From Clostridia bacterium (GTDB taxonomy: Bacteria; Bacillota; Clostridia; Christensenellales; Aristaeellaceae): a stretch of DNA of 60,021 bases. The stretch lies in NCBI GenBank assembly GCA_017545905.1, contig JAFWXL010000071.1, positions 1-60,021 on the forward strand. Reading direction: 5' to 3'. Position 1 is the first letter of the stretch; each line of letters begins with the position of its first letter. Under the pieces are notes generated by a model. It saw nothing but the letters and a program-made list of their open reading frames with translations, was not told the DNA's origin and did no database searches. Below are positions 36,956-51,838 of the stretch, piece after piece. The position numbers and the translations under genes are program-made.

Positions 36956-38977
36956 TCAGCGCCAGAACAGCTGCTGCGCAATCACAGAAAGCTGGTGAAG
37001 CCGTTCATTGATCGCAGCAATCTGATCATTGGTGTGTCGCATCTGATTGTCATAGGCTATTCTGGCTTCCTCAAATTCAACCAGAAAAGCCTCCACCACC
37101 TTCTCAGGCAGCTGGGTCACGGCGTTCAGATAAGCGCTATAGACCTGGTCAAGGCTCTCCTCCATGCTTTTGCCGGCATTTACCCTTGCGCTTTCCAATG
37201 CCTTGCGAACCTTTTCCTTCGCCTCTCTTTTTGTCTTTTCCAGAGAGCGGAACACATTGTAGATCTGCTCCACCACCACGAGGGGCATGACGGCCAGCTC
37301 CAGCACGACCGCAATGGCAGCCTCCGGAATGCTGTCCGTATTGAATACGCCGTCAATTCCATGCAGGGTGTTCCTGAATATGACGCTTCCTGTCACAGCA
37401 ACTTTAGTCCCAGCCTTCAGATGATCCACATCCACGATATCCGAAGTGCTCATCTTCAGGGTATTCACCGCCGCTGCAGATACGTTCAGATGATAACGCT
37501 CATAGCACTCATTCAGCCATGTCCTGTAGGCGGCCAGCTCATAGCCGAGTGACTGCCTGAAATCCTGAATGCTGCGGCCTATGGCTGCCTCCACGCCGGA
37601 CATTGCATGCTGATTAAAACCGCTCAGGCAGATGGAAACCTCCTCTTTGCTGCCGCACAAGTCAATGGCCCGAAGCATCTGCTGCCACTTTCTCTCAATC
37701 GCACCGCCAATCACGCCTTCATGCAGCGCGTCGTGCGCGATTCTTCTCTCCTTCATCTTCTCCTGGAATACCTCAAGCATCTGCCCGCATTCCTCTTTCA
37801 TCTTCTCGGGAGAGGCTTTTTCCAGTTCCTTCTGCACGCTGTCAAGCTGTTCCCGCTTTGCGCCAAGGCTGTCCGTGAGCAGAGTTGTGATCTGCTCCAC
37901 TACCGCGGTCACATTCGCGTGAACAATGCTGTTTCTGCGATCAGCCATTTCCATGAAAATCGTCTCGATGGTATTCTCAAAACGCTTTTGCCACATCCGG
38001 GCCTTCTCATCGGCACTGTCGCCGTCCAGATAAGCATCCAATGCATACACTGCCGAAATACAGTGTACCTCCGGCTCGTCAACGCCAAGCATAGAAAGAT
38101 GATGTGCGACAAAGTCTCTGAGCTCCTCCAGCCCTTTGGACGATCGGATCATATCGCACTTGGTAATCACAAAGATGGAATGCTTCAGCAGATGGGATGC
38201 GTTTTCCTGCAGGAAGCTGCCGAAGGACGCCGTATAGACCCGCTCCGCCGGAAACATGATGATGGCGGCGTCCGCCGCATCGCGCAGCACCTCCTGCGTC
38301 ACGCGCACATGATCAGCCGTTCCATCTGTTCCGGGATTGACGCCGGGCGTATCAATCAGGCAGATGCCCTGATACTTCTCATTCAGCGGCGCCTTGACGT
38401 CTACCCGCGAAATACATCCGCTGAGCCGGTTATCGGTTGTCACTGCGTCGATCAGCCTGTCGGAATCCTCAGGAAGCCGAATGCCTGCATAATCCTCAAA
38501 GGCCTTTCTTCCGCCATCCCTGTGCAGCGCAAACGAATTGCCGTTGCTGCCGTGCGCCGTGACCAGATAGCTGCCGAAGCCGCCGACGGGGCTGCGGACG
38601 CTCCATGTGATATACGTGGGCACTGCGGTCGTAGGCTGCATATCCGTGGCAAGGATTTCCTTCTGGAACAGCGCGTTGATGAACGTGCTCTTGCCGCTGC
38701 TGTATTCGCCGATGATCGCCAGATTCAGCCTGCTGTCGCAATATCGCTCCTCAGCCACATTGAGCTGACGCATAAGCGTTTCTCTCTGTCCGGCGTCCAG
38801 CGACGCGACGATATCCTTGAGTTTTGCCAGCATGTCCTGCATGGTGAGCGCTTCATCAGCCCGGCTCTGACCGGCAGATTTTGCCATATATCCTGTAATG
38901 ACAGTGCCGCAGTAGGTACATTGGCTGCATGCCGTGGGAACATTTCCGCCGCATTTGGGACATCGTTTCACGATCAA
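36956..38977 (-). CDS. Dynamin-family GTPase with N-terminal zinc ribbon
   Basis: 673 residues. Four Cys in CPKCG (6-10) and CTYCG (20-24), with Cys17 between, form a zinc ribbon. The dynamin-type GTPase follows: P-loop GEYSSGKS (90-97), switch Thr near 117, DTPG (209-212) and TKCD (272-275), all intact. The rest is largely helical, with coiled-coil character near 370-420 and a hydrophobic stretch IPEAAIAVVLELAVMPLVVV near 545-565 that may insert into or bind membrane. It is the last gene of the operon. A possible extra -10 (TATAAT, 39063-39068) in the 147-nt spacer upstream could give it separate expression. A membrane-remodelling or defence role is inferred from the family and neighbours. 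Confidence 0.85.
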   Translation of the reverse strand: MIVKRCPKCGGNVPTACSQCTYCGTVITGYMAKSAGQSRADEALTMQDMLAKLKDIVASLDAGQRETLMRQLNVAEERYCDSRLNLAIIGEYSSGKSTFINALFQKEILATDMQPTTAVPTYITWSVRSPVGGFGSYLVTAHGSNGNSFALHRDGGRKAFEDYAGIRLPEDSDRLIDAVTTDNRLSGCISRVDVKAPLNEKYQGICLIDTPGVNPGTDGTADHVRVTQEVLRDAADAAIIMFPAERVYTASFGSFLQENASHLLKHSIFVITKCDMIRSSKGLEELRDFVAHHLSMLGVDEPEVHCISAVYALDAYLDGDSADEKARMWQKRFENTIETIFMEMADRRNSIVHANVTAVVEQITTLLTDSLGAKREQLDSVQKELEKASPEKMKEECGQMLEVFQEKMKERRIAHDALHEGVIGGAIERKWQQMLRAIDLCGSKEEVSICLSGFNQHAMSGVEAAIGRSIQDFRQSLGYELAAYRTWLNECYERYHLNVSAAAVNTLKMSTSDIVDVDHLKAGTKVAVTGSVIFRNTLHGIDGVFNTDSIPEAAIAVVLELAVMPLVVVEQIYNVFRSLEKTKREAKEKVRKALESARVNAGKSMEESLDQVYSAYLNAVTQLPEKVVEAFLVEFEEARIAYDNQMRHTNDQIAAINERLHQLSVIAQQLFWR

Positions 38978-39062
38978 TTCCTCATTTCACTTGTGAATTG
39001 CTGTCTGATCCTTAAAAAATACCGGTGCAAAAGCGTCCGGACGCCTTGCCTTTGATGATCCT

Positions 39063-39068
39063 ATTATA
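39063..39068 (-). promoter_or_regulatory. Possible internal -10 box before the zinc-ribbon dynamin gene
   Basis: The minus strand reads TATAAT in the 147-nt spacer between the HerA-like gene and the zinc-ribbon dynamin gene. No good -35 is found at 16-18 bp, so support is modest. Confidence 0.3.
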
Positions 39069-39123
39069 CAGGAATTGCCGGAAAACAAAGGAAAAAAGGA
39101 AGAATCACCCTGCGAACCGGCAG

Positions 39124-42100
39124 TTATGCCTTGCTGCTGATATACTCCAGATATCGGATATACAGACCCTTTGCAGACGCCTCCCTGCGTCCCCACCTGT
39201 GCAGGCCAAAGGAAACCAGCGTTCTGATCTCGTCCCCGGTCAGCACTGCACGATGTGATATGCTCCTGTGCACGTCATCTGCCCACTGAGAGATGCTCTT
39301 TGCCTGCGCGCCGCCTTTGAGTATCTGTTCCAGATCAAGAATCCGGCAAAGCGCGCTGTATTCCTCATCGCCAGTCAGCACGGAGGCAGCATCCTCCGTC
39401 CATCCGGTCAGGATTCTTCTCGCTTCCCGCTCCTGCGTATTCAGAAAGGCCGAATCGTACTGTTTGAATGCCTCAATCTTCTGCGCATCCAGACTGCTCT
39501 CCCTGCCGGACATGCGATGCATGATCAGCGCTGCCGCAGCCTGACCAAGAAGCCCCCGATGATCGATCTTCATATTGACCGGCGTGAACACGAACGGCCT
39601 TTCGCGGCTCTTATCAAAATAATCAATCTTGCACAGCACGGCGTCCGCCCATCCATTCTGATAGACCGCCGCCACACCCGTACGCAGCTTAGCGATCTCC
39701 TGCTGCTGGGCATCGTTCAAAGAGAGGGAATTGCCTGCAATGAGGCGGTCTTCCCGGTCGGGCAGCATAAAAAACACCTTGGTCTGCGTATTGCGGATGA
39801 CGGACCAGTCCATCACAGAAGGCGACTGATCGGCTATGATAAAGCCTTCGCCGGAAGAACGCATCTCTGCAATGGCGGATGCAAGCATCTCCACCGAGGC
39901 CGCACGCGCACTGCTTCCTTCAGAGGAAGGATTATGCCTGCGCAGCAGGTTATGCGCCTCTTCCAGAACGGTCACATGGCGAAGCGGCGAGTTCATTCTG
40001 CCTTCCGCCATGCGGTATTCGATCAGCCTGGTGGTCAGCACACCCATGAGCAGCGCCTTGGTTTCAGCAGAACCGATCCGGCTGATATCGGCAATCACAT
40101 TGCTGCTGAACAGGTTTTCGTCTCCGATCTCGTCCTGGCTGAAGATCAGACCGTACAGACCGTTCGTCAGGGATTTCACGCGGGTAACCAGCGCGCCGAT
40201 ATAGTTTCCCTTTACCTCATTGGAGTAACTCGACTGATTGATCACCCGCGGAAGCGCCTCCAGCAGATCGCTGAAGGACGGGAACTGCGCCCCTTCCGGC
40301 CGGCCGCCGCCCATGAGATTGAATCCCTTCTCGGTATAAATCAGTTCCACAGCCTCCTTCAGAATGGCTGGCATCGCGGAATACATGGGCCAAGCGGTAT
40401 TGAAGATGTCCAGCAGGCGCTCGATATGCTGGATGGTGGGAATCTCATCCGGGCATGCAAAGGGATTGATCCGCAGGACAGGGCCTCTGGCCGGGTCGAC
40501 GCCATACACGCTGAAGCCCTCCCGGCCGCCAAGCACATGGCGGTATTCGCCCTTAGCCGGCTCGATGATCAGCATCTTGATGCCATGGCGGTCCAGCTCG
40601 TCCAGCAGCTGATAACAGAAATTGGATTTACCCACGCCAGTTGCACCGGAAACGAACAGATGCTTCGTCAGGTCATCCAGATTCAGATTGACCGTCGTGC
40701 GCGTATCCACCTTTCCCATGTGATAAATGCTGCCAATACGGATGGATCTGGCGTTTTTCTTCACTTGCGCTGCGCTTCTGCTCACAACATCCCTTGCAAA
40801 GCGGGCAGCGGTCGAGGCGACCATGCCCGGAATTGTCCGTTCGGGCAGAGCAAAATACCGCGGCATGTCGCTCAGGCCGATCAGCTGCGCAAGGCGCACC
40901 TCGGGGAAGACGTCATTATTGGGAAACCTGAATACCGGATGACGGCCGCTGGCAAGATAATGCCGGATAATGGCGACGTCCGATGTCTGATTCCATTCGC
41001 AGATCGGAGAATGCAGCGTTGCAAGCGCGCCGGATGTGCAGATGGAACGGTACTGATTGGCGGCAGACACGGCCGTTTCGCTGTCTCCGGCGATAAAATA
41101 AGCCGCCGTATGAAAGGCGCCTTCGCGCTGGAAGGTGGCGATCTGCTTGAGCTGCGCATCGAGCATGCTCAGGATATCCGCAATCGCCTTGTTGACCTGC
41201 GTTGCCTGCTGCGTTTCGCCATAGGTGTTGCTGTAATTCGTATTGGCTCCCTGCTGCGTATTCTCTGCGCGGCTCTGGTTATATCCCAGCTGCATGCTTT
41301 CATTCGAGGATTCATCCTCGTGGGTGGAAACGCTGGCTGCCGCCTGATGATCCTGCGCCTTCATACCCAGAATCTGCTCGCCGCTGGAAATCACCTTCGT
41401 CAGCGAGGAACTGTAGAACAGCGACTGCAGCACATTCGCCTCAGGGCCGGCCAGCAGCACCGCGGCGGCCGTTCCGGCCAGATACAGTCCGCTGTTGTGG
41501 CGGGCCCTGTCCTGATCAAGCTCCTGCTGCTGGGATACCGCCGCGCCTCTGGTGGTGCTGTGTCCGCGGGAGATACTGGCATTATGGCCGATGGTCTCCG
41601 TGATCGCCCTGGATATGCTCTCTCCGATCGATTTGGAATTGCTCTGAGAGAGCGTCAACGTGGATTTTTCCAACGATGAGAGCTCCGTATACAGCCGCTG
41701 AAGCTGCTGACGCATGGCCGATAGCTCTTCAGGGAGAATCGACTGCGCAAGCAGCACCATGGAAAACGGACTGTGCTTCATGCCCTCGATCAGCACATCC
41801 AGCTTCTGCAGCTGCTCATCCTGCCGCTTTTCTTCCATCGGAAAGGCTGCAACGGCGGAAACATGGATGGATTCTGCGGGCGGAAGCAGCTCATCCATCA
41901 AAGAACGGATCGCCGCATTATGCAGAATCCTGTACTGGCAGCCCGGAAGAAGGCTGTTCATCGAGCGCAAAAATGTATCGAACACAGGCTGGGGCGCCTG
42001 CTCGCAGGCAACGCCCATGTAAATCTCGGCACGATCCTTTTTGCCATTGATCAGCAGCACGATGCTTTCGCCGTAGTTTTCCACCGCGCCGAACAGCGAC

Positions 42101-42309
42101 TTCAGCTTTTCCGAAACCCGTTCCTGCTGGTCGTAGAGCAGCGTATCCACGTGAATCAGGCGCAGGTTTTCCGCACTGTCAGCAGGTGCAGCGATGCCGA
42201 CAAGCTTTGCCCTGCTCATGCACTGCAGGTATTCCTTGTGAAGAAACAGCTTGGCATGCGCAAGCGCCGAAAGCGTCTTTTCCTGCATGTTGTTTGCATC
42301 CATACTCAT
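39124..42309 (-). CDS. HerA/FtsK-like ATPase (DUF87-type ATP-binding protein)
   Basis: 1061 residues. The C-terminal half is a HerA/VirB4-like motor: Walker A SGATGVGKSN near residue 552, AKGEYRHVLGG, and Walker B VTVLEEAHNLLRR near 780, followed by SAIAEMRSSGEGFIIADQSP, the arginine/sensor region of the HerA-FtsK class. The N-terminal 220 residues form a mixed domain of unknown type. Residues about 215-400 are unusual: Ser/Gln/Asn-rich with a short hydrophobic segment (YLAGTAAAVLLAGPEA). Such motors form hexamers that move DNA or protein, and HerA proteins are known from several defence systems. Its ATG overlaps the upstream gene by 4 nt. The actual cargo here is unknown. Confidence 0.82.
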   Translation of the reverse strand: MSMDANNMQEKTLSALAHAKLFLHKEYLQCMSRAKLVGIAAPADSAENLRLIHVDTLLYDQQERVSEKLKSLFGAVENYGESIVLLINGKKDRAEIYMGVACEQAPQPVFDTFLRSMNSLLPGCQYRILHNAAIRSLMDELLPPAESIHVSAVAAFPMEEKRQDEQLQKLDVLIEGMKHSPFSMVLLAQSILPEELSAMRQQLQRLYTELSSLEKSTLTLSQSNSKSIGESISRAITETIGHNASISRGHSTTRGAAVSQQQELDQDRARHNSGLYLAGTAAAVLLAGPEANVLQSLFYSSSLTKVISSGEQILGMKAQDHQAAASVSTHEDESSNESMQLGYNQSRAENTQQGANTNYSNTYGETQQATQVNKAIADILSMLDAQLKQIATFQREGAFHTAAYFIAGDSETAVSAANQYRSICTSGALATLHSPICEWNQTSDVAIIRHYLASGRHPVFRFPNNDVFPEVRLAQLIGLSDMPRYFALPERTIPGMVASTAARFARDVVSRSAAQVKKNARSIRIGSIYHMGKVDTRTTVNLNLDDLTKHLFVSGATGVGKSNFCYQLLDELDRHGIKMLIIEPAKGEYRHVLGGREGFSVYGVDPARGPVLRINPFACPDEIPTIQHIERLLDIFNTAWPMYSAMPAILKEAVELIYTEKGFNLMGGGRPEGAQFPSFSDLLEALPRVINQSSYSNEVKGNYIGALVTRVKSLTNGLYGLIFSQDEIGDENLFSSNVIADISRIGSAETKALLMGVLTTRLIEYRMAEGRMNSPLRHVTVLEEAHNLLRRHNPSSEGSSARAASVEMLASAIAEMRSSGEGFIIADQSPSVMDWSVIRNTQTKVFFMLPDREDRLIAGNSLSLNDAQQQEIAKLRTGVAAVYQNGWADAVLCKIDYFDKSRERPFVFTPVNMKIDHRGLLGQAAAALIMHRMSGRESSLDAQKIEAFKQYDSAFLNTQEREARRILTGWTEDAASVLTGDEEYSALCRILDLEQILKGGAQAKSISQWADDVHRSISHRAVLTGDEIRTLVSFGLHRWGRREASAKGLYIRYLEYISSKA

Positions 42310-42914
42310 TGCTTATCCTCCCGGCTCAGCAGTGCTTCCCATGCTCTGCGCATCTCAATGACCTTCATTCTCTCAGCTTCGTCCGCCGCTTTCTGAATCT
42401 GGCGGATCAGATCGATGTAATCTTCGATGAGGCTGACCGTTTCCTCCGCGCTCATTTCCGATTTGAGCCGGCTGTCCAGTCTGTCCCGCCTGAACATCAG
42501 GCTCTGCGTCGAAACGGGCACATTCCAGCCTCTGCGCAGCGTGCGCATCTGATCCTGCAGCTGTCCGATGGTAAATCTTTCCCTGTGCGTCAGCCGGATT
42601 TCGACCGGATCAAATCCTCTTTCCGTCAGGGCTGCAGCCTGCCTGTGCACAGCCTCAGAAAAGAGGCTGTAATCCTCGCGATTCCCTTCAAAGACCATGT
42701 CCACATCAATTTCGTTGATTTCTGCAATCAATTCCGGCAGAAAGCCGTTCCACTGCAGGTAGCCGCATGTGAGCGCCTCCAGCCAATGGCTCATCGGCTT
42801 ATGGATGACCATCTTCTGGATCTTGCTGCCCTGTCTGGCAAATCCGGCGTGATTGATCATCAGCCGGGCCGCCTGAGAAAACGGATTGTAGATCAACTGA
42901 ACGTAACACGGCAT
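42306..42914 (-). CDS. Unknown protein of the dynamin/HerA operon (202 aa)
   Basis: I do not recognise a family. From the ATG at 42914, with AAGGTGG 5 nt upstream, the product is about 202 residues, soluble and without signal peptide or membrane span. The first half is mixed alpha/beta; the second half is charged and likely helical, rich in Arg and Glu (DRLDSRLKSEMSAEETVSLI). It overlaps the start of the HerA-like gene by 4 nt, suggesting that the two proteins are made in balance and may form a complex. Nothing catalytic is visible. Confidence 0.7.
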   Translation of the reverse strand: MPCYVQLIYNPFSQAARLMINHAGFARQGSKIQKMVIHKPMSHWLEALTCGYLQWNGFLPELIAEINEIDVDMVFEGNREDYSLFSEAVHRQAAALTERGFDPVEIRLTHRERFTIGQLQDQMRTLRRGWNVPVSTQSLMFRRDRLDSRLKSEMSAEETVSLIEDYIDLIRQIQKAADEAERMKVIEMRRAWEALLSREDKQ

Positions 42915-42995
42915 TGCTTCCACCTTCTATCTTTATGGATCAAAGGGCTGACCCGAAAACGAGGCAGCCCTTATCTGAATCAGCATCAAACGCCG

Positions 42996-45014
42996 TTAAT
43001 TATACTGAGCGGCGATTTGATTGCCCTCCCGGCAGATCTCATCAAGCGTTTTCATCGCATCCTGATTCCGCTTGATGAGCAGATTCTTTTCGCCGACGCC
43101 CTTTTGCGCAACTTCGCACATGGCGCCGATCTCAGCGCGCTTCTTGTCCAGTTCCATCTGGAGCTGCGCTTTGATGCGTTCGCCGGCATTGACAATGATG
43201 TCGTCGCAGGCCCTGATCATGCCGGCAGTCGTGGTCTGCTGAGAGGTAGCGGCTTCGCTGTAAGCCTTGCGGAATCCCGCCATGATATCCGCTTTGAGCT
43301 TCGTCTCCCGCTTTTCATTATTGGTGGCAAGAATCGCGATGATATGCGTGGCGATATCTGCCGCAAGCACAAGCGGAATACTGACCGGAACGCCCATGCC
43401 CAAGGCCACCATGACAGCCGTGTTGACGGCAATATTGCCTGCAATGGCCCTGCCCATCGCGCCGGTTCCATGGGTCAATGCCAGCGATCCGGTGAAGGGA
43501 TCGCCCGTCAGCGCGGTGAAGGCGACGCCCGCAACCACGTCCGTAATCGTCTTCTTGTTCTTTTCCTTCCGATAGTTGCCGGTCAGCTTCGCGTCCACTT
43601 CATCCATCTGAACATAGAAGTCCATCAGCTCGCTGCCGATCGTCTCCAGGCTGCTGGTGATGACGGACTGCAGCATGTTGCTCATCTCCGTCATCATCCA
43701 GTCCTTGTTGGCGCGCGCCATGCGCTGTTCCAGTTCATTCTGGCATTCCTGCTGGATGGCTTCCGCCATCTTTCCATCCCTGCCGGGGATGAACTTGGTC
43801 ATTCCGCGGGGCAGCCTATTCTTGAGCTCATAATCCTCCAGATCCACCTTGTTGGCGAGCTGGGCCACGTGGTTTTCGATGCTGGCCTCCAGCAGCGGGC
43901 GCGCCTTCTGAACGGCGTCCTTGAAATGCGCGACGCTCGCGAGCATATTCTGCTCGGCGATATCCAGCTCCTGATTGGCTGCCGCAATGCGCGTATTGAG
44001 CACGCCGATATCGGTGGTGGCGCTCAGCCTGATCTTATCCGCCATCGACGTCAGTTCTTCGCAGAGGCGCTGCATCGAGTTATTGAGCGTCTGGATCTTC
44101 ATGCGGCCCTTGTTTTCCACCAGATAGCGGGTATAGAACTTTTCAAAGCCGTCGAAGCCGGAGCGCACGACCATGTCACGGTCTCCGGACAGCTTGCCAT
44201 CCAGAGCATCCAGACTGTCGATGAAATGGATGCCCGCGTCGCCGATGTCCGTGTGATTGGCAGCCTGCTGACGGGCAATCTCGCAGAACTCGTCCATCAC
44301 GCTCTGCGGCTTGCGGCGGTTACGGTGCATAACCTCGCCGAACTTGGTATAGACGATGATCAGATCCCGGAAACCGAAATCATTGATGCGGGTCAGCAGA
44401 CGCTTGTCCTCAGCGGTATAGATGTGATTGCTGTCCATCAGATAGATGACGGCGTCGGACTTGGGGAAATAGCGCTCGGTGATATAGTCGTTGCCCCACG
44501 GATCGTTCATGCCGACGGTATCGATGAGCATGATGCCCTCTTTGAGCAGCGGAATATCACATTCCACCACGACGCGCTCGTACTGCATGTTGCTCGTCAG
44601 TTCGCCGGTCATGTTGGCCTTGTTGTCGATGGAACAGTACTTCTTGAACACGTCTGCCGCCGGATCGATCAGAACAAGGGGCTCTGCATTGCCGGAACCT
44701 TCCTTGGGATACAGGGTGATGCGGTACTGCTCGCCGTAGATCAACTCAGTAATGACGCCGGTTTCCGGCAGATCGCCGGTGGGCAGGAAGTTTTCCCGGC
44801 CTGCCAGCGCGTTGATCATGCTGGTTTTGCCGGCATTGAATGCGCCAACAATAAGCACCTTGAAAGCTTCCCTGGTCTTTTTCTTCTGCTCATCCAGAAT
44901 CATCTGGATTTCCGTGTTCTCAGGCGCAATGGTCACTGCACACTGCTTTTCATCCGTCAGCAGACCGTTCACCTTTTCCAGGTTGCTGTTGTGCATTTCC
45001 AGAGTAACGTTCAT
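42996..45014 (-). CDS. Dynamin-like GTPase, membrane-associated
   Basis: 672 residues. The P-loop is GAFNAGKT (57-64), with switch Thr near 86 and DTVG (165-168). The G4 position reads TKFG (223-226) in place of the usual TKxD, so guanine recognition may be altered. Long helices follow. A hydrophobic region at about 500-570 (GRAIAGNIAVNTAVMVALGMG, then IPLVLAADIATHIIAIL) looks like the paddle or membrane-insertion part of bacterial dynamins. AAGGAGAG precedes the ATG. The adjacent upstream gene encodes another related GTPase, and paired dynamins are known to act together in bacteria (for example LeoA with LeoBC). The role here is inferred. Confidence 0.85.
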   Translation of the reverse strand: MNVTLEMHNSNLEKVNGLLTDEKQCAVTIAPENTEIQMILDEQKKKTREAFKVLIVGAFNAGKTSMINALAGRENFLPTGDLPETGVITELIYGEQYRITLYPKEGSGNAEPLVLIDPAADVFKKYCSIDNKANMTGELTSNMQYERVVVECDIPLLKEGIMLIDTVGMNDPWGNDYITERYFPKSDAVIYLMDSNHIYTAEDKRLLTRINDFGFRDLIIVYTKFGEVMHRNRRKPQSVMDEFCEIARQQAANHTDIGDAGIHFIDSLDALDGKLSGDRDMVVRSGFDGFEKFYTRYLVENKGRMKIQTLNNSMQRLCEELTSMADKIRLSATTDIGVLNTRIAAANQELDIAEQNMLASVAHFKDAVQKARPLLEASIENHVAQLANKVDLEDYELKNRLPRGMTKFIPGRDGKMAEAIQQECQNELEQRMARANKDWMMTEMSNMLQSVITSSLETIGSELMDFYVQMDEVDAKLTGNYRKEKNKKTITDVVAGVAFTALTGDPFTGSLALTHGTGAMGRAIAGNIAVNTAVMVALGMGVPVSIPLVLAADIATHIIAILATNNEKRETKLKADIMAGFRKAYSEAATSQQTTTAGMIRACDDIIVNAGERIKAQLQMELDKKRAEIGAMCEVAQKGVGEKNLLIKRNQDAMKTLDEICREGNQIAAQYN

Positions 45015-45052
45015 CTCGACACTCTCCTTTATCTATGGTGTAGTTGACACGC

Positions 45053-46561
45053 TTACTGTGCTTTCAATCTGTCGGCAATCGCCTGAAGCTGAGAAACCCG
45101 CTGCGGCTGGACAGGCGCCCTGTCAAGGGCTGACCGGTCGACCGGCGGCTCATGCATGGCGTCGCTGAGCGCCCTGTATGTCCGCTGGATATCCGGGATC
45201 AGAACCGTCTGCAGCTCTTTCACGCAGGCGGCAGCCCAGTTCTTGATGGCCGCTTCATGCTTCTCCGTCTGCGATGCAGCGTTCCTGAATACATACGCGG
45301 CGCCGCCGGCAATTGCGCTGGCAGAGATCACGCCGATGGTCCAGGGCGTCGGCATCCGGCTGAGCAGTGTGAAGGCACTGACTGCCCCGACGCTGGCAGC
45401 GGACTGAATCATATACGGCAGTTCGTTGCCGGTGCCCTGCTGAAAGCGGATTGCGTGGTTTGCGCCATGCGCAAAATCCACGTTCCTGCCAAGGGACTGC
45501 AGATCCCTTTCGCTGAGCACATTCTGTGCAGCGGCGTCGGATGTAATCGAGAGCAGGCTTTCCTTCATCTGCGCTTCGAGCGTGCGCAGCTGCTCATTGA
45601 CAAGCGCTTCCGCCTGCCCGGCCAGACGCTGCCGGAATGCCTGATCGAATCTGCACTGCCTGCCCTGTGCAGCCATCTGCTGCGCAAAGGCATCAATTTT
45701 CCGGCCGATCGCACGGACCTTTTCCGTCATTTCGTTGCCGGCCGTGGAGCAGCGCAGCTTCATTTCCTGGCAAATCCTGCCGGCTGTAACGGACGCCAGC
45801 CGGGCATTGCGCTGCTGGATTTCCTGCTGTTCCAGAAGAGAGGCGAGATTGCTGTTCTCCTCTTCAATCAGCCTGTGCGTATGCTCAATGAGCAGGCATC
45901 TGCATTGCTCTTTGATCATGTCCTGATGCGCTTTGCGGTGCGCAAGCAGGTCGGCTGTCGCGGGCAGTGCGATACGCATCTGCTCCGACACAGCGTCCCA
46001 GCTGTCCGGACCGGCGAAAATGGGAGCGGCAAGGTTCATGCGCTCGCAGGCCTTCTTCGCATATACCTTCGCCGATTCCATATCCTGCGCCGCGACCCGG
46101 TCGCACTGGGTGGCGATCACATGAACCGGCATACCGCCCAGAGACGCAATGGCCTTTTTGTCCTCGGCAGTCATGAAGTGGGAAAGCGGCGAGAGATAGA
46201 ACACCACGTCCAGTTCGTCTACCCAATGCGCCTCTTTGAGAAGCCTTTCCGCCGAAAACTCGTACATAACGGCATCCGTGCCGCCCCATTCCCTGCTGAA
46301 AACATGCACGCACTCAAAGCGTTCATCGTCCGCCATGCGGTCAAATGCCACACGCAGGGGCAGGCTCTGCGAAGGAAGCAGCGACGGCTCGCACACCTGC
46401 TGTTGGAGAATCCCGTTGAGCAATGTGGTTTTTCCGCAGTTGACAGGACCGACAATGCCCACATGCGTCCCGCTTCGCTGCAAAAGCGCCTCCGCATTCT
46501 TCAGCCTCTTTTGCACATCGTCAGCGCCCAGTTCCTGGGCAATGCTATATAGATCATCCAT
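45053..46561 (-). CDS. Divergent dynamin-like GTPase
   Basis: 502 residues. The P-loop is GPVNCGKT (38-45) and the G4-like TQCD is at 151-154. No DxxG (G3) motif is seen where it should be (residues about 100-125), so hydrolysis may be impaired or the fold divergent. The middle is helical and Gln-rich. The C-terminal part has a hydrophobic stretch (TPWTIGVISASAIAGGAAYVF, about 400-425) likely to touch the membrane. It lies 38 nt upstream of the second dynamin gene, consistent with a heteromeric pair. GTGAGG precedes its ATG. Confidence 0.75.
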   Translation of the reverse strand: MDDLYSIAQELGADDVQKRLKNAEALLQRSGTHVGIVGPVNCGKTTLLNGILQQQVCEPSLLPSQSLPLRVAFDRMADDERFECVHVFSREWGGTDAVMYEFSAERLLKEAHWVDELDVVFYLSPLSHFMTAEDKKAIASLGGMPVHVIATQCDRVAAQDMESAKVYAKKACERMNLAAPIFAGPDSWDAVSEQMRIALPATADLLAHRKAHQDMIKEQCRCLLIEHTHRLIEEENSNLASLLEQQEIQQRNARLASVTAGRICQEMKLRCSTAGNEMTEKVRAIGRKIDAFAQQMAAQGRQCRFDQAFRQRLAGQAEALVNEQLRTLEAQMKESLLSITSDAAAQNVLSERDLQSLGRNVDFAHGANHAIRFQQGTGNELPYMIQSAASVGAVSAFTLLSRMPTPWTIGVISASAIAGGAAYVFRNAASQTEKHEAAIKNWAAACVKELQTVLIPDIQRTYRALSDAMHEPPVDRSALDRAPVQPQRVSQLQAIADRLKAQ

Positions 46562-46642
46562 TTCAAAACCTCACTGTGATTTGTTTGACCGCAGTATACC
46601 AGAATCGGAGCCTTCCGTGTGCAATGCGGTATTTTCAGGGCG

Positions 46643-47368
46643 TCAGGCGGTATTTTTCAGCACGCTCCTGACAGCTTCGTATTTCGAATCCGAAACAGGA
46701 AGCCTTTCTCCGTTGGATAATTCAACCCAATGACTGCGCTTATCCAGATAGCGGATGTGCGCCTTGTTGACGATATAGCTTTGGTGGATCCGGATGAACG
46801 CATCCCCCAGCTGCTGCTCCGTCAGATGCTTCTGTATCTCGGACAGCTTTCTCACCAGCACAATAGCTGGCAGCTTCTCACACTGAATGGATACATTCTT
46901 GAGTTCGGACTGGAAGTACAGGATGCTGTCTGAGCGCAGGATGTACAATCCGTCCCTGTTTTCAATGGCAAAGGAGCCTGCATGCATGCGGATATCCGCC
47001 ATGACTGCCGGAATCAGCTCGCTCAGCGTCCAGGGGCAGCCCGTTCCGTCCGGGCAGCGGAAATAGCCGATCGGCCTGACGGCCAGCAGCGAAGCCAGCT
47101 CGCAATCCACCCTGCTGAAAAACACGATCCGGCAGTCCCGGCTGCCGCTGTAAATCTCCTCAGCCATGCGCTGAGCATCGGGCATATCCAGCGAAATCAG
47201 CGCAAAGCGAACCTGCGGAAAGAACTCAGCGCGCTTTTCTTCGCTGGGGAACCGGCTCATCCAGAGAGTCCGGCAGATCAGATTCGTATGAAATGCGTAT
47301 TCCTCAATGTGCTTTCTGATAAAGCCGCAGACTTCCTGACGCTCCTCATATACGGCGATCAAAAACAT
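46643..47368 (-). CDS. LytTR-type regulator with receiver-like domain lacking the phospho-Asp
   Basis: 241 residues. The C-terminal about 105 residues are a LytTR DNA-binding domain (LYILRSDSILYFQSELKNVSI, FIRIHQSYIVNKAHIRYLDK, ERLPVSDSKY). The N-terminal about 120 residues resemble a response-regulator receiver (FALISLDMPDAQRMAEEI), but the residue four before the conserved Pro, normally the phosphorylated Asp, is Ser. It probably responds to something other than a partner kinase, and no kinase gene is near. It sits in the middle of the operon, with its ATG 2 nt from the upstream stop codon, and is the likely regulator of the cluster. Confidence 0.82.
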   Translation of the reverse strand: MFLIAVYEERQEVCGFIRKHIEEYAFHTNLICRTLWMSRFPSEEKRAEFFPQVRFALISLDMPDAQRMAEEIYSGSRDCRIVFFSRVDCELASLLAVRPIGYFRCPDGTGCPWTLSELIPAVMADIRMHAGSFAIENRDGLYILRSDSILYFQSELKNVSIQCEKLPAIVLVRKLSEIQKHLTEQQLGDAFIRIHQSYIVNKAHIRYLDKRSHWVELSNGERLPVSDSKYEAVRSVLKNTA

Positions 47369-47369
47369 G

Positions 47370-47834
47370 TCATTCTGCCTCCGTCATATACACGTCAGAA
47401 AGGCCCAGCGCATCAATGGCTTCAGACACGATCCGGTTATATTGCGCCAGGGTTTCGGCTTTCAGGCCGCTTCCGGCTGCTTCCTGCAAAAGCCTGTCGC
47501 TGTGCATGCGCACCTGCGTCGCCATGCGCGCATATTCCTGCATAAATGCCGTGCCCTGCGCGTCATGTGCGGGCATGCCTGCTCCCGGAGCGTCCTGCAG
47601 CACCAGATTGTCAAAGCGGCAAAGATGCCTGAACGGGAAGACAAATTCTACCCTGTACGCCGGTTTGCAAAATACGGCGCTCTCCGCGGAAAAATGCTCC
47701 CGATGAAGAAGAAAACGCACATGCAGGGTATTGGCACGGACCGAATAAAACGGAAAACCCATCGTCATTTCCATACCCACTTCGCGCATCACGGGATGAT
47801 CGCGCAGCCGTTTCATCATCAGCTCCGTATTCAT
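47370..47834 (-). CDS. Unknown protein of the dynamin/HerA operon (154 aa)
   Basis: No family recognised. The start is placed at the ATG at 47834, with GGGGAG upstream, because the longer open frame overlaps the preceding gene on the same strand and reads as low-complexity there. The product is about 154 residues, without signal peptide or transmembrane span. It has an aromatic beta-rich middle (VEFVFPFRHLCRFDNLVL) and helical ends. It ends 2 nt from the regulator start, so translation is coupled. Confidence 0.65.
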   Translation of the reverse strand: MNTELMMKRLRDHPVMREVGMEMTMGFPFYSVRANTLHVRFLLHREHFSAESAVFCKPAYRVEFVFPFRHLCRFDNLVLQDAPGAGMPAHDAQGTAFMQEYARMATQVRMHSDRLLQEAAGSGLKAETLAQYNRIVSEAIDALGLSDVYMTEAE

Positions 47835-47838
47835 GGCA

Positions 47839-48447
47839 TTACTCCCCATCGATGACATAGCAGCAGCTGCCGCACGCCGACCATGCCTGTATGAACGCCT
47901 CCAGCGAACAATGCTGCAGGGCGTATTCTCTGCCGAAAGATTGCAGGCAGACCGTGGGCGCATCCGGATCGCGCAGATCCATGCCCCTGACTTCTGCCAT
48001 GTATGCACAGGAAAGCTGTGCATGCGCGGCGTCGCCCGCGAGGCCGGACATGCGGATTGTGCACAGAACGCGGCAGTCCTGCGCAAGCGCCTGCGTGATA
48101 TCGGTCAGGGAAGCGCCCTGCAGCACTTCAACTGACGCCTCCTGCATTTCCAGCAGGTATTCAACGTCCATCACAGACGTGCCGCAGGCCGGCGGAAGCA
48201 GATCTGACAATGCCGGAATCTCCCGGATCAGATCCGCACCGCCAAGCTGCCCGGCAATGCCTTGCTGATCAAAGCCGTGAACCGGCTCCGTGCATGCTGG
48301 AATCTCCATGCTGCCAAACAGCAGGTCGGAGTCATCCTCGTCAAATGCGATCTCCCGGATGGGCTCGCAATGCTCAAGGATGACGCCCGCCTCCAGCTGT
48401 TCCAGCCTGCCGTCGCCGCAAACGCCTTCAAACATTCTTTCCATCAT
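47839..48447 (-). CDS. Unknown acidic protein of the dynamin/HerA operon (202 aa)
   Basis: No family recognised. 202 residues, clearly acidic (for example IAFDEDDSDLLFG), with several Cys, especially near the C-terminus (WSACGSCCYVIDGE). No signal peptide or membrane span. It is packed 3 nt from the 91-residue gene upstream and 4 nt from the 154-residue gene downstream, so it is part of the same operon. It may be an adaptor; there is no direct evidence. Confidence 0.65.
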   Translation of the reverse strand: MMERMFEGVCGDGRLEQLEAGVILEHCEPIREIAFDEDDSDLLFGSMEIPACTEPVHGFDQQGIAGQLGGADLIREIPALSDLLPPACGTSVMDVEYLLEMQEASVEVLQGASLTDITQALAQDCRVLCTIRMSGLAGDAAHAQLSCAYMAEVRGMDLRDPDAPTVCLQSFGREYALQHCSLEAFIQAWSACGSCCYVIDGE

Positions 48448-48449
48448 GA

Positions 48450-48725
48450 TTATCGGATAGGCTCAGAAAGCGCCTTCAGCGCTTCTTCCGGTTCCTTGAT
48501 GATCCAGTCCAGCGTGAGCAGCGCGCCGGTAAAGCGCATGCCCATTTCGCTGACCAGCCTGTTCAGGCTGTAGCCATGATACTGGGTCGCATCCTCACAG
48601 TGACCGTCGCGCAGCCATCTGTCCAGCAGCGGCTGGAGCGCCGGGGTAATCTCCTTGAGATCGTGCTCAATGACAGCAGCTCTCTTTTCGCTGCAGTTCA
48701 GACGTTCCATGATAATCGCCTTCAT
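48450..48725 (-). CDS. Small unknown protein of the dynamin/HerA operon (91 aa)
   Basis: No family recognised. 91 residues, predicted mostly helical and soluble. It begins MKAIIMERLNCSEKRA and contains YSLNRLVSEMGMRFTG. It has a ribosome binding site (GAGGGAATATC) and sits between the zincin gene (14 nt) and the acidic 202-residue gene (2 nt). Its size and position would suit a small adaptor or partner protein. Confidence 0.65.
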   Translation of the reverse strand: MKAIIMERLNCSEKRAAVIEHDLKEITPALQPLLDRWLRDGHCEDATQYHGYSLNRLVSEMGMRFTGALLTLDWIIKEPEEALKALSEPIR

Positions 48726-48739
48726 GATATTCCCTCCGA

Positions 48740-49336
48740 TCAGATGTTCAGCTCACTCAAGACTACATTGGCAAACGCGCGCGCATCCACCTCAACAGGC
48801 TGATTCTTATAGCGCAGGAAACCGATATCCTTGAAGATCGCCCAGTCGCCGGATTCATAGCCCAGCTTTTCAAAGTTGTCTCTCCAGGATTCCACCAGCA
48901 CCTCGTTTTTCTCGACCTGTTCACCGTAGAGATTGTGGAACTGATAGGCGTGGCGGCCCTCGTGGAACACCGTATCCAGCACCTCGCGGTACATGCCGTC
49001 GATGCCCAGCAGGCTGTCAGAAATCACGATCTTGTCGCCGTTGCAGTAACCCAGTACGCCGGGCTCCAGCGTTTCCAGCTCGATGCCAAGGGCAGGCCTG
49101 TGAGCAATCTCGGCGACTTCGTTCTCCAGCTGCTGCAAAGCGTCCACGCGCTCGCTGACATCCAGATTCTTCCAGTTTTCAAACTGAAGCTCCGGAATGT
49201 CCATAAAGACCTCGCGGATTTCGGCTGCCTGTACTTCCATGGAAGGAGCAAACTCTTCCAGCCCCTCGCCTGCGAAATCCGGGATCGGCGTATCCATGTT
49301 CTGCTCCAGTCCTTCAAAGATCAGATTGTGTTCCAT
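48740..49336 (-). CDS. Zincin-like protein with HEGRH motif, first gene of the operon
   Basis: 198 residues from the ATG at 49336, chosen because AGGAGG lies 8 nt upstream. HEGRH at 125-129 is a HExxH zinc site. The later Glu in PVEVDARAFA (about 183) is well placed as third ligand, a pattern seen in small gluzincin-like domains. The first 100 residues are acidic and lack signal peptide or membrane segment, so it works in the cytoplasm. It heads the dynamin/HerA operon. It may be a regulatory protease, an effector or a catalytically inert fold; protease activity is not shown by sequence alone. Confidence 0.75.
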   Translation of the reverse strand: MEHNLIFEGLEQNMDTPIPDFAGEGLEEFAPSMEVQAAEIREVFMDIPELQFENWKNLDVSERVDALQQLENEVAEIAHRPALGIELETLEPGVLGYCNGDKIVISDSLLGIDGMYREVLDTVFHEGRHAYQFHNLYGEQVEKNEVLVESWRDNFEKLGYESGDWAIFKDIGFLRYKNQPVEVDARAFANVVLSELNI

Positions 49337-49522: not shown

Positions 49523-49560
49523 ATTATAGAGCAATATAGTCAAATAGTCTACACTATATT
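49523..49560 (-). promoter_or_regulatory. Promoter and inverted repeat ahead of the dynamin/HerA operon
   Basis: The minus strand reads TAGACT (49546-49551), a 17-bp spacer, and TATAAT (49523-49528), giving a start about 180 nt before the zincin gene. An 8-bp inverted repeat (AATATAGT 49533-49540, ACTATATT 49553-49560) brackets the -35, and TAGTC occurs twice in direct orientation (49537-49541, 49545-49549). It is a plausible operator, perhaps for the LytTR protein of the operon. Confidence 0.6.
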
Positions 49561-49847: not shown

Positions 49848-51200
49848 TCAGAATCGATTGGAATAATCGTTCTGGCGAGTCTCTCTGTTCTGCCGGGCGC
49901 AGCCATCCTGCCGGGCATAACCATTCTGTCGCGTATAGCTGCCCTGCTGCGCATAACCGCCCTGCTGGGCCTGCTGCGCGTAACCGTTCTGACGGGCGTA
50001 GCCGCCCTGCTGGGCCTGCTGCGCGTAACCGCTCTGACGGGCGTAGCCGCTCTGCTGCGCGTAGCCGCCCTGCTGTGCGTAGCCGCTCTGCTGCGCGTAG
50101 CCGCTCTGCTGAGCCTGCTGCGCGTAGCCGTTCTGCTGCGCGTAGCCGCTCTGACGGGCGTAGCCGCCCTGCTGGGCCTGCTGCGCGTAGCCGTTCTGCT
50201 GCGCGTAGCCGCTCTGACGGGCGTAGCCGCCCTGCTGCGCGTAGCTGCTCTGCTGCGCGTAGCCGCTCTGCTGCGCGTAACCGCTCTGCTGCGCGTAGCC
50301 GCTCTGCTGCGCGTAGCCGCCCTGCTGAGCCTGCTGCGCGTAGCCGCTCTGCTGCGCGTAGCCGCTCTGACGGGCGTAGCCGCCCTGCTGGGTCTGCTGC
50401 GCGTAGCCGCTCTGCTGAGCATAACCGCTCTGACGGGCGTAGCCGCCCTGCTGGGTCTGCTGCGCGTAGCCGCCCCGATAGGGATAGGCATTCTGCTGCG
50501 GATATGCGTTCTGGCGGTAATGGTCATTCTGCGTTGAATATTCATTCCGGCGGTGATAGGCGTCCTTGCCGGAATATGTATTCTGACGGGAAGGCTCATT
50601 CTGCCGGATATGCTCATTCTTCTGGGTGGTCTGAGGCGTCCGGGATCGCTTCTGCGAGTCATGGCCCCGCTTTGCGCTTCGCCTTGCAGCTGCTTTTTGT
50701 TTGCTTTCCAGCGAATCTGTGTAGAACACGAATCCAATCATCAATCCGCATACGAGAATGGCTACATAGATTCCCGGCGGCTGCTGGATGAAGCTGGCGA
50801 CATAGCCCAGATACGGAATGGAAAACATGACTTTTCCGACAATATTGCCAGCGCTGACCAGTCCGGCGTCCACATCCCTATTGGCGTCGCCCTTGGTACG
50901 ATAGCGCACGACAGACGGATTCGTTTCATCCGGAACGATTTCCACAATACGGTGCGTGGCGATCACATTGGGCGAAACGCTGAACGTAATGACGTCATTC
51001 ACACGCAGATCAGCGGCATCCACGCGCCTGACATAGATCAGCGAGCCCGTAGGATGTGTCGGCTCCATCGAGCCGGTCAGCACGCCGTATACCTGTATGC
51101 CGAAAATGCGGATGCCAGTGATCATAAAGGCAAAAACCATCGCCATGATCACCATGCCGGTAGACAGGGTTTTCAAAATCTGTATCGTTTTCTTATTCAC
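49848..51200 (-). CDS. sipW: SipW-type signal peptidase I with long Tyr/Gln/Gly-rich repeat tail
   Basis: 450 residues. Residues 1-165 are a complete ER-type (SipW) signal peptidase: first membrane span at about 13-33, catalytic Ser44 in TGSMEPT, His83 in ATHRIVEI (replacing the Lys of ordinary type I enzymes), GDANRD near 104-109, and a second span at 143-160. These enzymes cut the signal peptides of TasA-like fibre proteins, which are encoded just upstream. Residues 163-450 are unusual: a basic linker (KQKAAARRSAKR), then from about 242 roughly 27 copies of a YAQQSG-like hexapeptide. Two spans and the basic linker place the tail in the cytoplasm. The GTG start overlaps the upstream stop (GTGA). 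Confidence 0.9.
   Translation of the reverse strand: MNKKTIQILKTLSTGMVIMAMVFAFMITGIRIFGIQVYGVLTGSMEPTHPTGSLIYVRRVDAADLRVNDVITFSVSPNVIATHRIVEIVPDETNPSVVRYRTKGDANRDVDAGLVSAGNIVGKVMFSIPYLGYVASFIQQPPGIYVAILVCGLMIGFVFYTDSLESKQKAAARRSAKRGHDSQKRSRTPQTTQKNEHIRQNEPSRQNTYSGKDAYHRRNEYSTQNDHYRQNAYPQQNAYPYRGGYAQQTQQGGYARQSGYAQQSGYAQQTQQGGYARQSGYAQQSGYAQQAQQGGYAQQSGYAQQSGYAQQSGYAQQSSYAQQGGYARQSGYAQQNGYAQQAQQGGYARQSGYAQQNGYAQQAQQSGYAQQSGYAQQGGYAQQSGYARQSGYAQQAQQGGYARQNGYAQQAQQGGYAQQGSYTRQNGYARQDGCARQNRETRQNDYSNRF
49900..50480 (-). repeat. 18-bp tandem repeats inside the signal peptidase tail
   Basis: The coding sequence consists of about 27 imperfect 18-bp units (plus strand CTGCTGCGCGTAGCCGCT-like), some with 9-bp insertions. 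They encode YAQQ/YARQ followed by SG, GG or NG. The repeats keep the frame throughout. Copy number is likely to vary among strains by slippage. Confidence 0.9.
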
Positions 51201-51838
51201 TGCTGCCTCCAGAAAAACGCGCGATTCCTATTCAGCATGACCAGACCCATTCCGCTGAGCATCAGCATAGCTGTCCACACAAGCAGATGCGCATGATCGC
51301 CGGTATTCGGCAGGGGAAGCGGCTCATCGTACTGATTCTGATACACCGCAACGATCTGTGTCACGGGCTGACCGTCGAGCTTCAGTTCCGCAGACATTTC
51401 ATGTATCTCATTGAGAACGAGAGAAATGCTGACGTCGTAAACCGTATCGTCATACGTCACATGCTCGCGTCCATTGTTCAGCTCATACAGGCGGTAACGG
51501 AAGGTCTTGCCGACGTCCTCCGCGCCAAACGTCAATTCTATGACAGCCAGACCATCGTCAGAAGACGTGGCAGCCGCCGTTTCGCCTGTTTCTTCATTGA
51601 TCAGCTGAAAATCGAAGCCGCCGGGGCCGATTCCTGCTTCGCTCAGATTCACCACGGATTTCTGAATCGTAACCGGCACGCAGATATCCTGCGGGGGCAG
51701 ATACTCCACGCGGAAGGAATTATGCAGCTTATTGGATCTGGCCGTGATATATGCCAAGGAGGTATACGTTGCCGTAACGACAGCGATTGCCGCACAAACC
51801 AGCAATGCCAGCTTCATCAGCGTGCCGCATCGTTTCAT
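51197..51838 (-). CDS. Pilin-like LPNTG surface protein with isopeptide-type domain
   Basis: 213 residues. It has an N-terminal signal segment whose SLAYITARSN resembles the cleavage region of the SipW substrates nearby, an FctA/Spy0128-type beta-sandwich, and LPNTG at 176-180 followed by a membrane span and an Arg-containing tail. That makes it a sortase substrate. Lys60, Glu119 and Asn168 (VYQNQY) are placed as in domains that form an intramolecular Lys-Asn isopeptide bond. It is probably a cell-wall anchor or base of the fibre built by the TasA-like proteins. No sortase gene is present in the window. AGGAGGG precedes its ATG. Confidence 0.8.
   Translation of the reverse strand: MKRCGTLMKLALLVCAAIAVVTATYTSLAYITARSNKLHNSFRVEYLPPQDICVPVTIQKSVVNLSEAGIGPGGFDFQLINEETGETAAATSSDDGLAVIELTFGAEDVGKTFRYRLYELNNGREHVTYDDTVYDVSISLVLNEIHEMSAELKLDGQPVTQIVAVYQNQYDEPLPLPNTGDHAHLLVWTAMLMLSGMGLVMLNRNRAFFWRQQ

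What the first reader, a model, noticed from the sequence alone, without database searches (positions are those of the whole stretch)
36956..49336. Ten-gene operon joining three dynamin-like GTPases, a HerA-like motor, a LytTR regulator and a zincin
Ten genes on the minus strand sit with short gaps or overlaps, behind one visible promoter and ahead of one terminator. Three encode dynamin-like GTPases, one a HerA/FtsK-like ATPase, one a LytTR regulator, one a HExxH protein and four are unknown. Dynamin pairs (Eleos/LeoA-LeoBC) and HerA motors (HerA-SIR2, HerA-DUF4297, Ago-HerA) are known from separate anti-phage systems. A system with both, plus its own regulator, is not one I recognise. It may act in defence, envelope repair or contact-dependent processes; the function is inference.
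Basis: partly seen in the sequence, partly recalled or inferred. Interest (0 to 1): 0.87.

Follow-up and report, generated by a model that had tools for sequence, protein, structure and literature searches.

The report
Dynamin–HerA operon with toxin–immunity pair
A ten-gene bacterial operon combines membrane-remodelling GTPases and a pump-like ATPase with a protease and its probable antidote; relatives of the same core in many bacteria carry swappable toxin and antidote genes, which suggests an undescribed way for bacteria to deploy toxins.

Summary
The ten close-packed minus-strand genes are real; promoter- and terminator-like sites are not above chance. GTPases g7 and g10 are clear dynamin relatives, g6 a degenerate one. 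The full order recurs in Clostridia L062 and L063 (L065 cut at a contig end), so it is a genuine system, though absent from the family sample.

Following HerA (g9) outwards explains it. Of 61 relatives with at least 5 kb before HerA, 56 carry dynamin-like GTPases. The next gene (65 scanned) is usually a colicin-type, WHH or LHH nuclease. The one after (61 scanned) is SMI1/KNR4-type in 34 and mostly a class-specific small protein in the rest. Effector classes change 23 times on the HerA tree. The window's HExxH protein (g1) and 91-aa partner (g2) have relatives in that toxin/immunity position in three loci, doubtfully in two more. g8 is a detached N-terminal domain of the second dynamin; g3 probably has a papain/C39 fold without conserved catalytic residues.

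Best reading: a polymorphic toxin–immunity system with a dynamin–HerA core that deploys the toxin at or through the membrane. Export is inferred; an intracellular suicide system is the main rival. Ten full-text searches turned up no description; bioRxiv was not searchable.

The parts
48740..49336 (-). g1: zincin-like metallopeptidase (HExxH...E), predicted effector
   Evidence: HExxH and a later glutamate invariant in 11 of 11 rows; relatives lie after HerA in L069, L070 (with g2 in between), L115, L130 and L134; 30% identical to the L134 protein, E 3e-15; weak Pfam DUF3920 E 0.0031, below cut-off
48450..48725 (-). g2: 91-aa partner of the zincin, predicted immunity protein
   Evidence: phmmer relatives beside a zincin gene in 7 of 80 loci; alignment with these and two doubtful ones, L130 and L134, whose partners stay single in clustering; no Pfam family over cut-off
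47839..48447 (-). g3: probable papain/C39-like fold, catalytic residues not conserved
   Evidence: AlphaFold2 model, mean pLDDT 63.4, good about residues 90-202; best PDB match C39-like peptidase 3erv E 1.4e-3, then papain-fold enzymes, none at E 0.001 or better; hhalign to C39-like proteins of relatives 71%, E 3.7e-5; alignment
47370..47834 (-). g4: unknown 154-aa protein, conserved with g3 and g5
   Evidence: homologues in L062-L065; weak profile match to the gene in a like position in L067, L068, L070 (20.9%)
46643..47368 (-). g5: LytTR transcription factor
   Evidence: PF04397 E 1.5e-15; phmmer homologues in 8 of 80 loci
45053..46561 (-). g6: degenerate dynamin-like GTPase
   Evidence: P-loop at residue 38, no DxxG; hhalign to g7 and g10 families 98.9% and 99.3%
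42996..45014 (-). g7: dynamin-like GTPase with C-terminal hydrophobic stretch
   Evidence: PF00350 E 7.4e-20; hydrophobic stretch at residue 534, G4 motif not clear; PADLOC LeoBC E 7.2e-13 over residues 20-621
42306..42923 (-). g8: free-standing copy of the N-terminal domain of the second dynamin of relatives
   Evidence: hhalign 98.6%, E 4.9e-16
39124..42309 (-). g9: HerA/FtsK-superfamily ATPase with a Ser/Gln/Asn/Thr-rich central insert
   Evidence: PF01935 E 8.1e-13; Walker A at 555, Walker B at 781, S+Q+N+T 38% in residues 200-400 against 24% overall, no hydrophobic segment over 1.3; NCBIfam ser_rich_anae_1 and CedD below cut-off
36956..38977 (-). g10: dynamin-like GTPase with N-terminal CxxC pairs
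   Evidence: PF00350 E 3.3e-22; P-loop, DTPG and TKCD motifs and a C-terminal hydrophobic stretch at 554; PADLOC LeoA E 1.3e-17
49523..49551 (-). possible promoter, not above chance
   Evidence: 10 of 12 consensus match; 7 such sites found, 7.8 expected

Best explanation
It is a polymorphic toxin–immunity system with a dynamin–HerA core. Shown by sequence: a HerA-type ATPase and dynamin-like GTPases form a recurring core; next to the core of the wider family sits an exchangeable effector gene followed by a class-specific partner. Inferred: in the window the effector is the metallopeptidase g1, and g2 protects the producer. The HerA ATPase assembles as a ring at the membrane; dynamin-like GTPases, with the adaptor domain g8 and their hydrophobic stretches, remodel or gate the membrane so that the effector is pumped out, packed into vesicles or passed to a neighbour at contact. 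LytTR g5 switches the operon on; g3 and g4 are accessory proteins of this LytTR-type branch, g3 possibly a peptidase-like scaffold without activity. Not shown: export, toxicity, immunity, order of events.
For: Full ten-gene order in L062 and L063, and in L065 with g10 cut at the contig end; L064 lacks g6 and has three zincins. GTPase with HerA in 56 of 61 loci that have at least 5 kb upstream; the other five are L083, L097, L110, L112, L139. First gene after HerA, 65 scanned: Colicin-DNase 33, WHH 32 (overlapping models), LHH 11, Endonuclea_NS_2 4, GH-E 1, papain-fold toxin 1. Second gene, 61 scanned: SMI1_KNR4 34, DUF6985 11, DUF7832 5, YezG 2, SUFU 1. Effector class and partner family match: WHE 11 of 11 in one cluster, RRxDF 5 of 5 in another (with two unclassified), WHH and LHH 33 of 33 in the SUKH cluster (with one unclassified); purity 0.784, 0 of 2000 shuffles as high, ten unclassified left out. 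23 effector-class changes among 64 labelled rows and six classes on the HerA tree, five being the least possible; shuffled labels need 37.6 on average, so classes are partly inherited and often swapped; regex labels alone give 18. A short N-terminal motif in 12 of 69 first genes with WHE, WHH, LHH, zincin or unclassified C-termini, 0.025 in shuffles, none in second genes (pattern chosen after seeing the sequences). Zincin with g2-like neighbour after HerA in L069, L070 and L115. 74 distant genes of the same loci show no toxin or immunity family among the 25 of 129 families listed. Plasmid copies annotated dynamin, dynamin, ATP-binding or DUF87 protein and HNH-type nuclease, followed by SMI1/KNR4 (two) or a DUF6985 protein. 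LeoABC dynamins raise vesicle-associated toxin release (PMC4159319, abstract and passages).
Against: No channel, pilus or sheath part was noticed in the loci, and no WXG, LXG, PAAR or RHS family among the 23 found in 65 effectors; g1-g4 and g8 have no strong hydrophobic segment, nor has g9; no signal-peptide predictor was run. Orphan immunity arrays, typical of contact systems (recalled), are rare: SUKH_5 in 2 of 78 further downstream genes, 25 of 45 families listed. WYL regulators, often linked to defence (recalled), lie upstream in 23 of 80 loci. In the window the pair heads the operon and is not after HerA. g2 resembles the L130 and L134 partners only 17-22% and these two stay single in clustering; L137's zincin-motif protein has a different 69-aa neighbour. 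DUF6985 and DUF7832 are not named immunity families. No activity data.
Confidence: 0.55

Rival explanations
1. Intracellular anti-phage or stress-triggered suicide system: HerA and dynamins sense infection or membrane damage and release the nuclease or peptidase from its partner, which works as an antitoxin; no export.
For: A WYL-type regulator on the same strand within 1.6 kb upstream of the first GTPase in 23 of 80 loci (27 with one anywhere), WYL by Pfam in 3 of 3 scanned; PADLOC matches of g7 and g10 to LeoA/LeoBC (best E 1.3e-17) and of g9 to HerA and mad8; copies on conjugative plasmids, with an Abi-family gene about 7 kb from HerA in L141; no secretion signal noticed; repeated pairs rare.
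Against: Effector swapping with class-matched partners, many of SUKH type, is the mark of toxins aimed at non-kin (recalled); no partner gene of the HerA defence systems among the ten proteins. Flanks of some loci (L111, L132) look like housekeeping genes, by eye only.
Confidence: 0.28
2. Plasmid- or island-borne addiction or bacteriocin module: the toxin is released by lysis or leakage and the dynamin–HerA part serves DNA transfer or partition.
For: Plasmid copies (39 plasmid records with a match at 1e-40, only 8 covering 80% of the query); colicin-type nucleases; HerA relatives include DNA translocases such as CedD.
Against: None of six flanking window proteins scanned is a mobility protein; the three plasmid stretches show no relaxase or partition gene annotated inside the core. 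A wider search for such genes was not made.
Confidence: 0.1
3. Membrane-repair or housekeeping machinery that merely neighbours toxin genes.
For: Bacterial dynamins can act in membrane repair (recalled); HerA relatives in the family sample lie in other contexts.
Against: Nuclease and partner directly follow HerA in the broad loci and were not listed among distant control genes; sporadic distribution (14 of 200 family genomes, own included, hold any HerA relative at 1e-30).
Confidence: 0.05

Closest known systems
[quoted passage not shown] 2012, PMC3482391; passages only)
   Same: Exchangeable toxins (colicin-DNase, WHH, LHH, papain-fold) followed by SUKH-type immunity proteins
   Different: The first 300,000 characters held of that paper have no 'dynamin'; a dynamin core is not among the trafficking modes in the passages seen
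Type VII secretion system b (EssC/YukA)
   Same: An FtsK/HerA-superfamily ATPase goes with toxin–immunity genes
   Different: One Walker A site in g9; no WXG100 or LXG family in the proteins scanned; dynamins instead
Eleos / LeoA-LeoBC dynamins
   Same: Several dynamin-like GTPases, related by profile (E down to 1.3e-17); LeoABC raises vesicle-associated toxin release (PMC4159319)
   Different: Here with HerA and an effector–partner pair and further genes; no Leo match for the second GTPase of L111 at E 0.001
HerA-SIR2 / HerA-DUF4297 and MADS (mad8) defence
   Same: HerA-type ATPase, moderate profile matches
   Different: No SIR2 or DUF4297 match among the ten proteins; dynamins and toxin-type pairs instead

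Membership tests
Polymorphic toxin system | variable toxin domain with conserved remaining system | tested here: met
   several effector families beside one core; 23 class changes on the tree under my labels. Tested on relatives, not on the window alone
Polymorphic toxin system | adjacent cognate immunity gene | tested here: met
   SUKH in 34 of 61 second genes and class-specific pairing. For the window's own pair only by position and conservation
Polymorphic toxin system | constant N-terminal trafficking region on the toxin | tested here: inconclusive
   short motif in 12 of 69 first genes, found post hoc; g1 of the window was not scored
Polymorphic toxin system | secretion and killing of non-kin | not testable with these tools
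   needs experiment
Type VII secretion system b | WXG100/LXG substrates | tested here: not met
   no such Pfam match in the ten window proteins, in 65 effectors or in four core proteins of L111
Eleos (LeoA-LeoBC) | dynamin pair of the Leo families | tested here: inconclusive
   g7 matches LeoA and LeoBC over most of its length (E 2.7e-13, 7.2e-13), g10 LeoA E 1.3e-17; no curated cut-off is given, and eight further genes accompany them
HerA-associated defence systems | HerA with SIR2 or DUF4297 partner | tested here: not met
   no such match among the ten proteins in Pfam, NCBIfam or PADLOC
Zincin metallopeptidase | HExxH plus third ligand | tested here: met
   H125, E126, H129 and E182 invariant in 11 rows; fold not modelled, so E182 as ligand is inferred

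The most novel reading that the evidence does not exclude
A new toxin-deployment machine: dynamin-like GTPases and a HerA motor form a membrane device that moves cytosolic toxins (nucleases, peptidases) out of the cell, in vesicles or into neighbours, without any known secretion channel, across Gram-positive and Gram-negative bacteria.
Probability: 0.35. Interest if true: 0.93.

Novelty: new variant of a known kind. Interest (0 to 1): 0.8.

Why it matters
If true, it adds dynamins to the small set of machines that deploy toxins and gives a function to a recurring pairing of dynamin-like GTPases with HerA ATPases. It also turns an old question, what bacterial dynamins are for, into one that can be tested by gene removal in dairy Lactococcus. 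If the suicide reading is right instead, it is a new dynamin-based defence family with exchangeable effectors.

Tried and rejected
Family-wide conservation: 200 same-family genomes, own genome included, were searched with g9, g7 and g10. Matches in 14, 7 and 6 of 200, own included; the fetched neighbourhoods (13 and 7 stretches, several on short contigs) did not hold the cluster. A scan of genome contigs with g7 found no relative.

g3 and g4 as a second effector–immunity pair: considered, then dropped. Catalytic residues are not conserved in g3, and genes of similar size sit between the LytTR gene and g8 in L067, L068 and L070. Those do not match g3 by profile (2.3%) nor the C39-like proteins (0.1%), and match g4 only weakly (20.9%), so this is a positional argument only. 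g4 against the partner of the C39-like proteins: no match (0.7%).

Orphan immunity arrays: looked for, rare. Promoter and terminator: not above chance. Solved structures for g1, g2 and C39-like families: no convincing match. Second AlphaFold2 job (g2 family) was interrupted and not repeated.

Limits of the labels: effector classes come from my regular expressions (WHH, LHH, WHE, RRxDF, HExxH), not from Pfam; the RRxDF class, called REase in the scripts, gave no Pfam match in the one member scanned alone (L122). L061-L066, L068-L070, L022, L115 and the window were labelled by hand for the tree; L062-L064 carry both zincin and C39-like genes and were labelled zincin. The 80 loci are the best of at least 532 related stretches and were picked by likeness to HerA, not at random. 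Genes in relatives are mechanical ORF tilings, not gene calls. Left out before counts: L110 (no HerA over 700 aa) and, L083, L093, L114, L115 (first ORF outside 140-450 aa or none).
Full report
Observation. The ten genes lie on the minus strand of 36956-49336 with gaps from -4 to 146 nt. Pfam confirms LytTR in g5, Dynamin_N in g7 and g10 and the HerA central domain in g9. g6 falls below cut-offs but joins g7 and g10 in profile comparison; it keeps a P-loop and has no DxxG. g7 has a P-loop and DTVG; its G4 motif is not clear. The promoter- and terminator-like sites are not clearly more numerous than in shuffles, so 'one promoter, one terminator' is not established. G+C of the cluster (0.559) is close to that of the window (0.564).

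Conservation. In 200 genomes of the same family, own genome included, g9 relatives occur in 14, g7 relatives in 7 and g10 relatives in 6. None of the neighbourhoods fetched holds the cluster at phmmer E 0.01; several are short contigs. One of those loci, L022, carries a parallel operon: a protein that looks like g8, a Ser-rich HerA and a C39-like peptidase after it (Peptidase_C39_2 E 0.01, below cut-off). An alignment of g9 with L022 and L023 was used to scan the genome collection (84,980 species by its description): at least 532 related stretches, the best 80 kept. Among these, L062 (Lachnospiraceae MAG) and L063 (Lachnoclostridium sp. An196) have all ten genes in the same order; L065 has them with g10 cut by the contig end; L064 lacks g6 and has three zincins; L061 has g5-g10 and a g3-like gene by alignment (18% identity). 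L066-L070 hold variants with another order.

The wider family. Most of the other loci are simpler: GTPase, GTPase, small protein, HerA, then two small genes. With iterated profiles, 61 loci have at least 5 kb before HerA; 56 have a GTPase-profile hit, 51 have two or more such ORFs, 45 have the small protein before HerA; the five without a GTPase are L083, L097, L110, L112 and L139 (itself printed 58 because its second profile also catches the adaptor domain). The second GTPase starts with a domain homologous to g8 (98.6%, E 4.9e-16, nine sequences). Record titles suggest Bacillota, Pseudomonadota, Fusobacteriota, Spirochaetota, Bacteroidota and single MAGs of Eggerthellaceae and Methanosarcina (phyla from my reading of the titles, binning not checked).

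Toxin and immunity. Of 69 broad loci, 65 have a 140-450 aa gene right after HerA and 61 a further 80-190 aa gene. Pfam at E 0.01 on the 65: Colicin-DNase 33, WHH 32, LHH 11, Endonuclea_NS_2 4, GH-E 1, papain-fold Gln_amidase 1, putative metallopeptidase DUF6782 1; most of the rest of the 23 families look like chance. On the 61: SMI1_KNR4 34, SUKH_6 33, SUKH_5 30, DUF6985 11, DUF7832 5, YezG-like 2, SUFU 1. As a control, 74 genes more than 4.5 kb beyond HerA in the same loci gave no toxin or immunity family among the 25 listed of 129 families; the other 104 were not shown. Grouping the second genes by similarity gives 11 clusters: one holds all 33 partners of WHH and LHH nucleases (plus one unclassified), one all 11 partners of the WHE class, one all 5 partners of the RRxDF class (plus two unclassified); 0 of 2000 shuffles are as pure. 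The partners of the two zincins in that set (L130, L134) stay single. On a HerA tree of 82 rows, effector class changes 23 times among 64 labelled rows and six classes (least possible five); shuffled labels need 32 or more, mean 37.6, so classes are partly inherited and often swapped. With regex labels only, 52 rows and five classes give 18 changes (shuffles 23 or more). Zincins appear in several separate places, and the window's HerA lies in a supported group with L061-L065. A motif near the N-terminus is shared by 12 of 69 first genes whose C-termini are WHE (6), LHH (2), WHH (1), zincin (1) or unclassified (2); shuffles give 0.025 and the second genes none. The pattern was chosen after seeing the sequences, and most of the twelve lie in one part of the tree.

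Named examples. Lactococcus cremoris plasmid pF27B (typed conjugative): WYL regulator, two dynamin family proteins, two hypothetical proteins, ATP-binding protein, HNH endonuclease, small protein; Pfam: WYL, WHH/Colicin-DNase, DUF6985. E. coli plasmid pTW10590_133 (typed conjugative): two dynamin family proteins, hypothetical, ATP-binding protein, HNH/ENDO VII nuclease, SMI1/KNR4; Pfam: LHH and SUKH. Treponema saccharophilum plasmid pTS2: WYL, two dynamins, hypothetical, DUF87, HNH, SMI1/KNR4. Overall 39 of 72,556 plasmid records matched one HerA query at 1e-40, 8 of them over at least 80% of it; 1 of 50,697 phage records matched.

The window's own pair. g1 and its relatives share HExxH and a later glutamate in 11 of 11 rows. 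In L069, L070 and L115 a g1-like and a g2-like gene lie after HerA, where other loci keep toxin and partner; in L069 and L070, which belong to the wider LytTR-type group, g2 comes first. L130 and L134 have a g1-like gene there with a neighbour that resembles g2 only by alignment (17-22%). L137 has a zincin motif with a different 69-aa neighbour. Hence g1 as effector and g2 as its immunity protein are inferences from position and pairing. In the window the pair heads the operon, as in L062-L065.

g3 and g4. An AlphaFold2 model of g3 is good mainly for residues 90-202 (mean pLDDT 63.4). Its best PDB match is a C39-like peptidase (3erv, E 1.4e-3), followed by papain-fold enzymes; none is at or below E 0.001. 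Cys and His of the C39-like proteins of relatives are not conserved in g3. g4 remains unknown. Genes of like size between the LytTR gene and g8 in L067, L068, L070 suggest that g3 and g4 are fixed parts of the LytTR branch, but sequence profiles do not show it.

Mechanism. Two readings fit. In the first, HerA is a pump and the dynamins remodel the membrane to release the effector; LeoABC dynamins that raise vesicle-borne toxin release are a precedent (PMC4159319, abstract and passages). Hydrophobic stretches near the C-termini of g7 and g10, and in HerA and the small protein of L111, fit a membrane site; g9 itself has no segment over 1.3. In the second, the core senses infection and frees an intracellular toxin; a WYL regulator within 1.6 kb upstream of the first GTPase in 23 of 80 loci (3 of 3 scanned confirmed by Pfam) and the lack of noticed secretion signals speak for it. 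Swapping of effectors with matching partners favours the first, but export is not shown.

Literature. Ten full-text searches of open PMC papers: dynamin + HerA + polymorphic toxin, 0 papers; dynamin + HerA + antiphage, 2 papers seen as listing only; polymorphic toxin + HerA, 20 (passages seen in PMC3482391, PMC12839542 and PMC7159879); dynamin + polymorphic toxin, 2, unrelated by title; a six-term search, 93 papers with four terms, 20 listed; dynamin + DUF87, 0; a loose search, 3,666 papers, 20 listed; LeoA + dynamin + enterotoxin, 5 (passages seen in PMC4159319); dynamin + SUKH, 0; dynamin + immunity protein + HNH, 0. Subscription papers and bioRxiv were not searchable, so novelty is provisional.

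Noticed in passing
window 49848-51200 (-): Signal-peptidase-like protein (Peptidase_S26 E 1.7e-4, just under cut-off) whose C-terminal part is a Gly-Tyr-Ala-Gln-Gln repeat array of 18-base units with a 216-base higher-order copy.
   Followed up: partly
window 51197-51838 (-): FctA-like isopeptide domain protein (E 5.1e-5) with an LPNTG end by eye, next to the signal peptidase; looks like a surface-fibre gene set.
   Followed up: partly
L022 3545-16654: Parallel operon with a kinase-like protein (by eye), an Hsp70/actin-like protein (by eye; no Pfam or NCBIfam match), a g8-like protein, Ser-rich HerA and a C39-like peptidase, so the dynamins may be replaceable by another NTPase.
   Followed up: partly
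L097 7246-9939: g8-like domain joined to many Sel1 repeats in place of a dynamin, beside HerA and a WHH-type gene.
   Followed up: no
L025, L031: Other HerA relatives in the family sit with kinase-, PP2C- or radical-SAM-like genes (by eye), a different conflict-like context.
   Followed up: no
L054 8409-14316: Three tandem dynamin-like genes; no HerA relative found in the 19.9-kb stretch of this same-family genome.
   Followed up: no
L026 9976-12954: Same-genus genome holds a HerA relative in two overlapping frames without partners found in the stretch; possibly a decayed copy or an assembly error.
   Followed up: no
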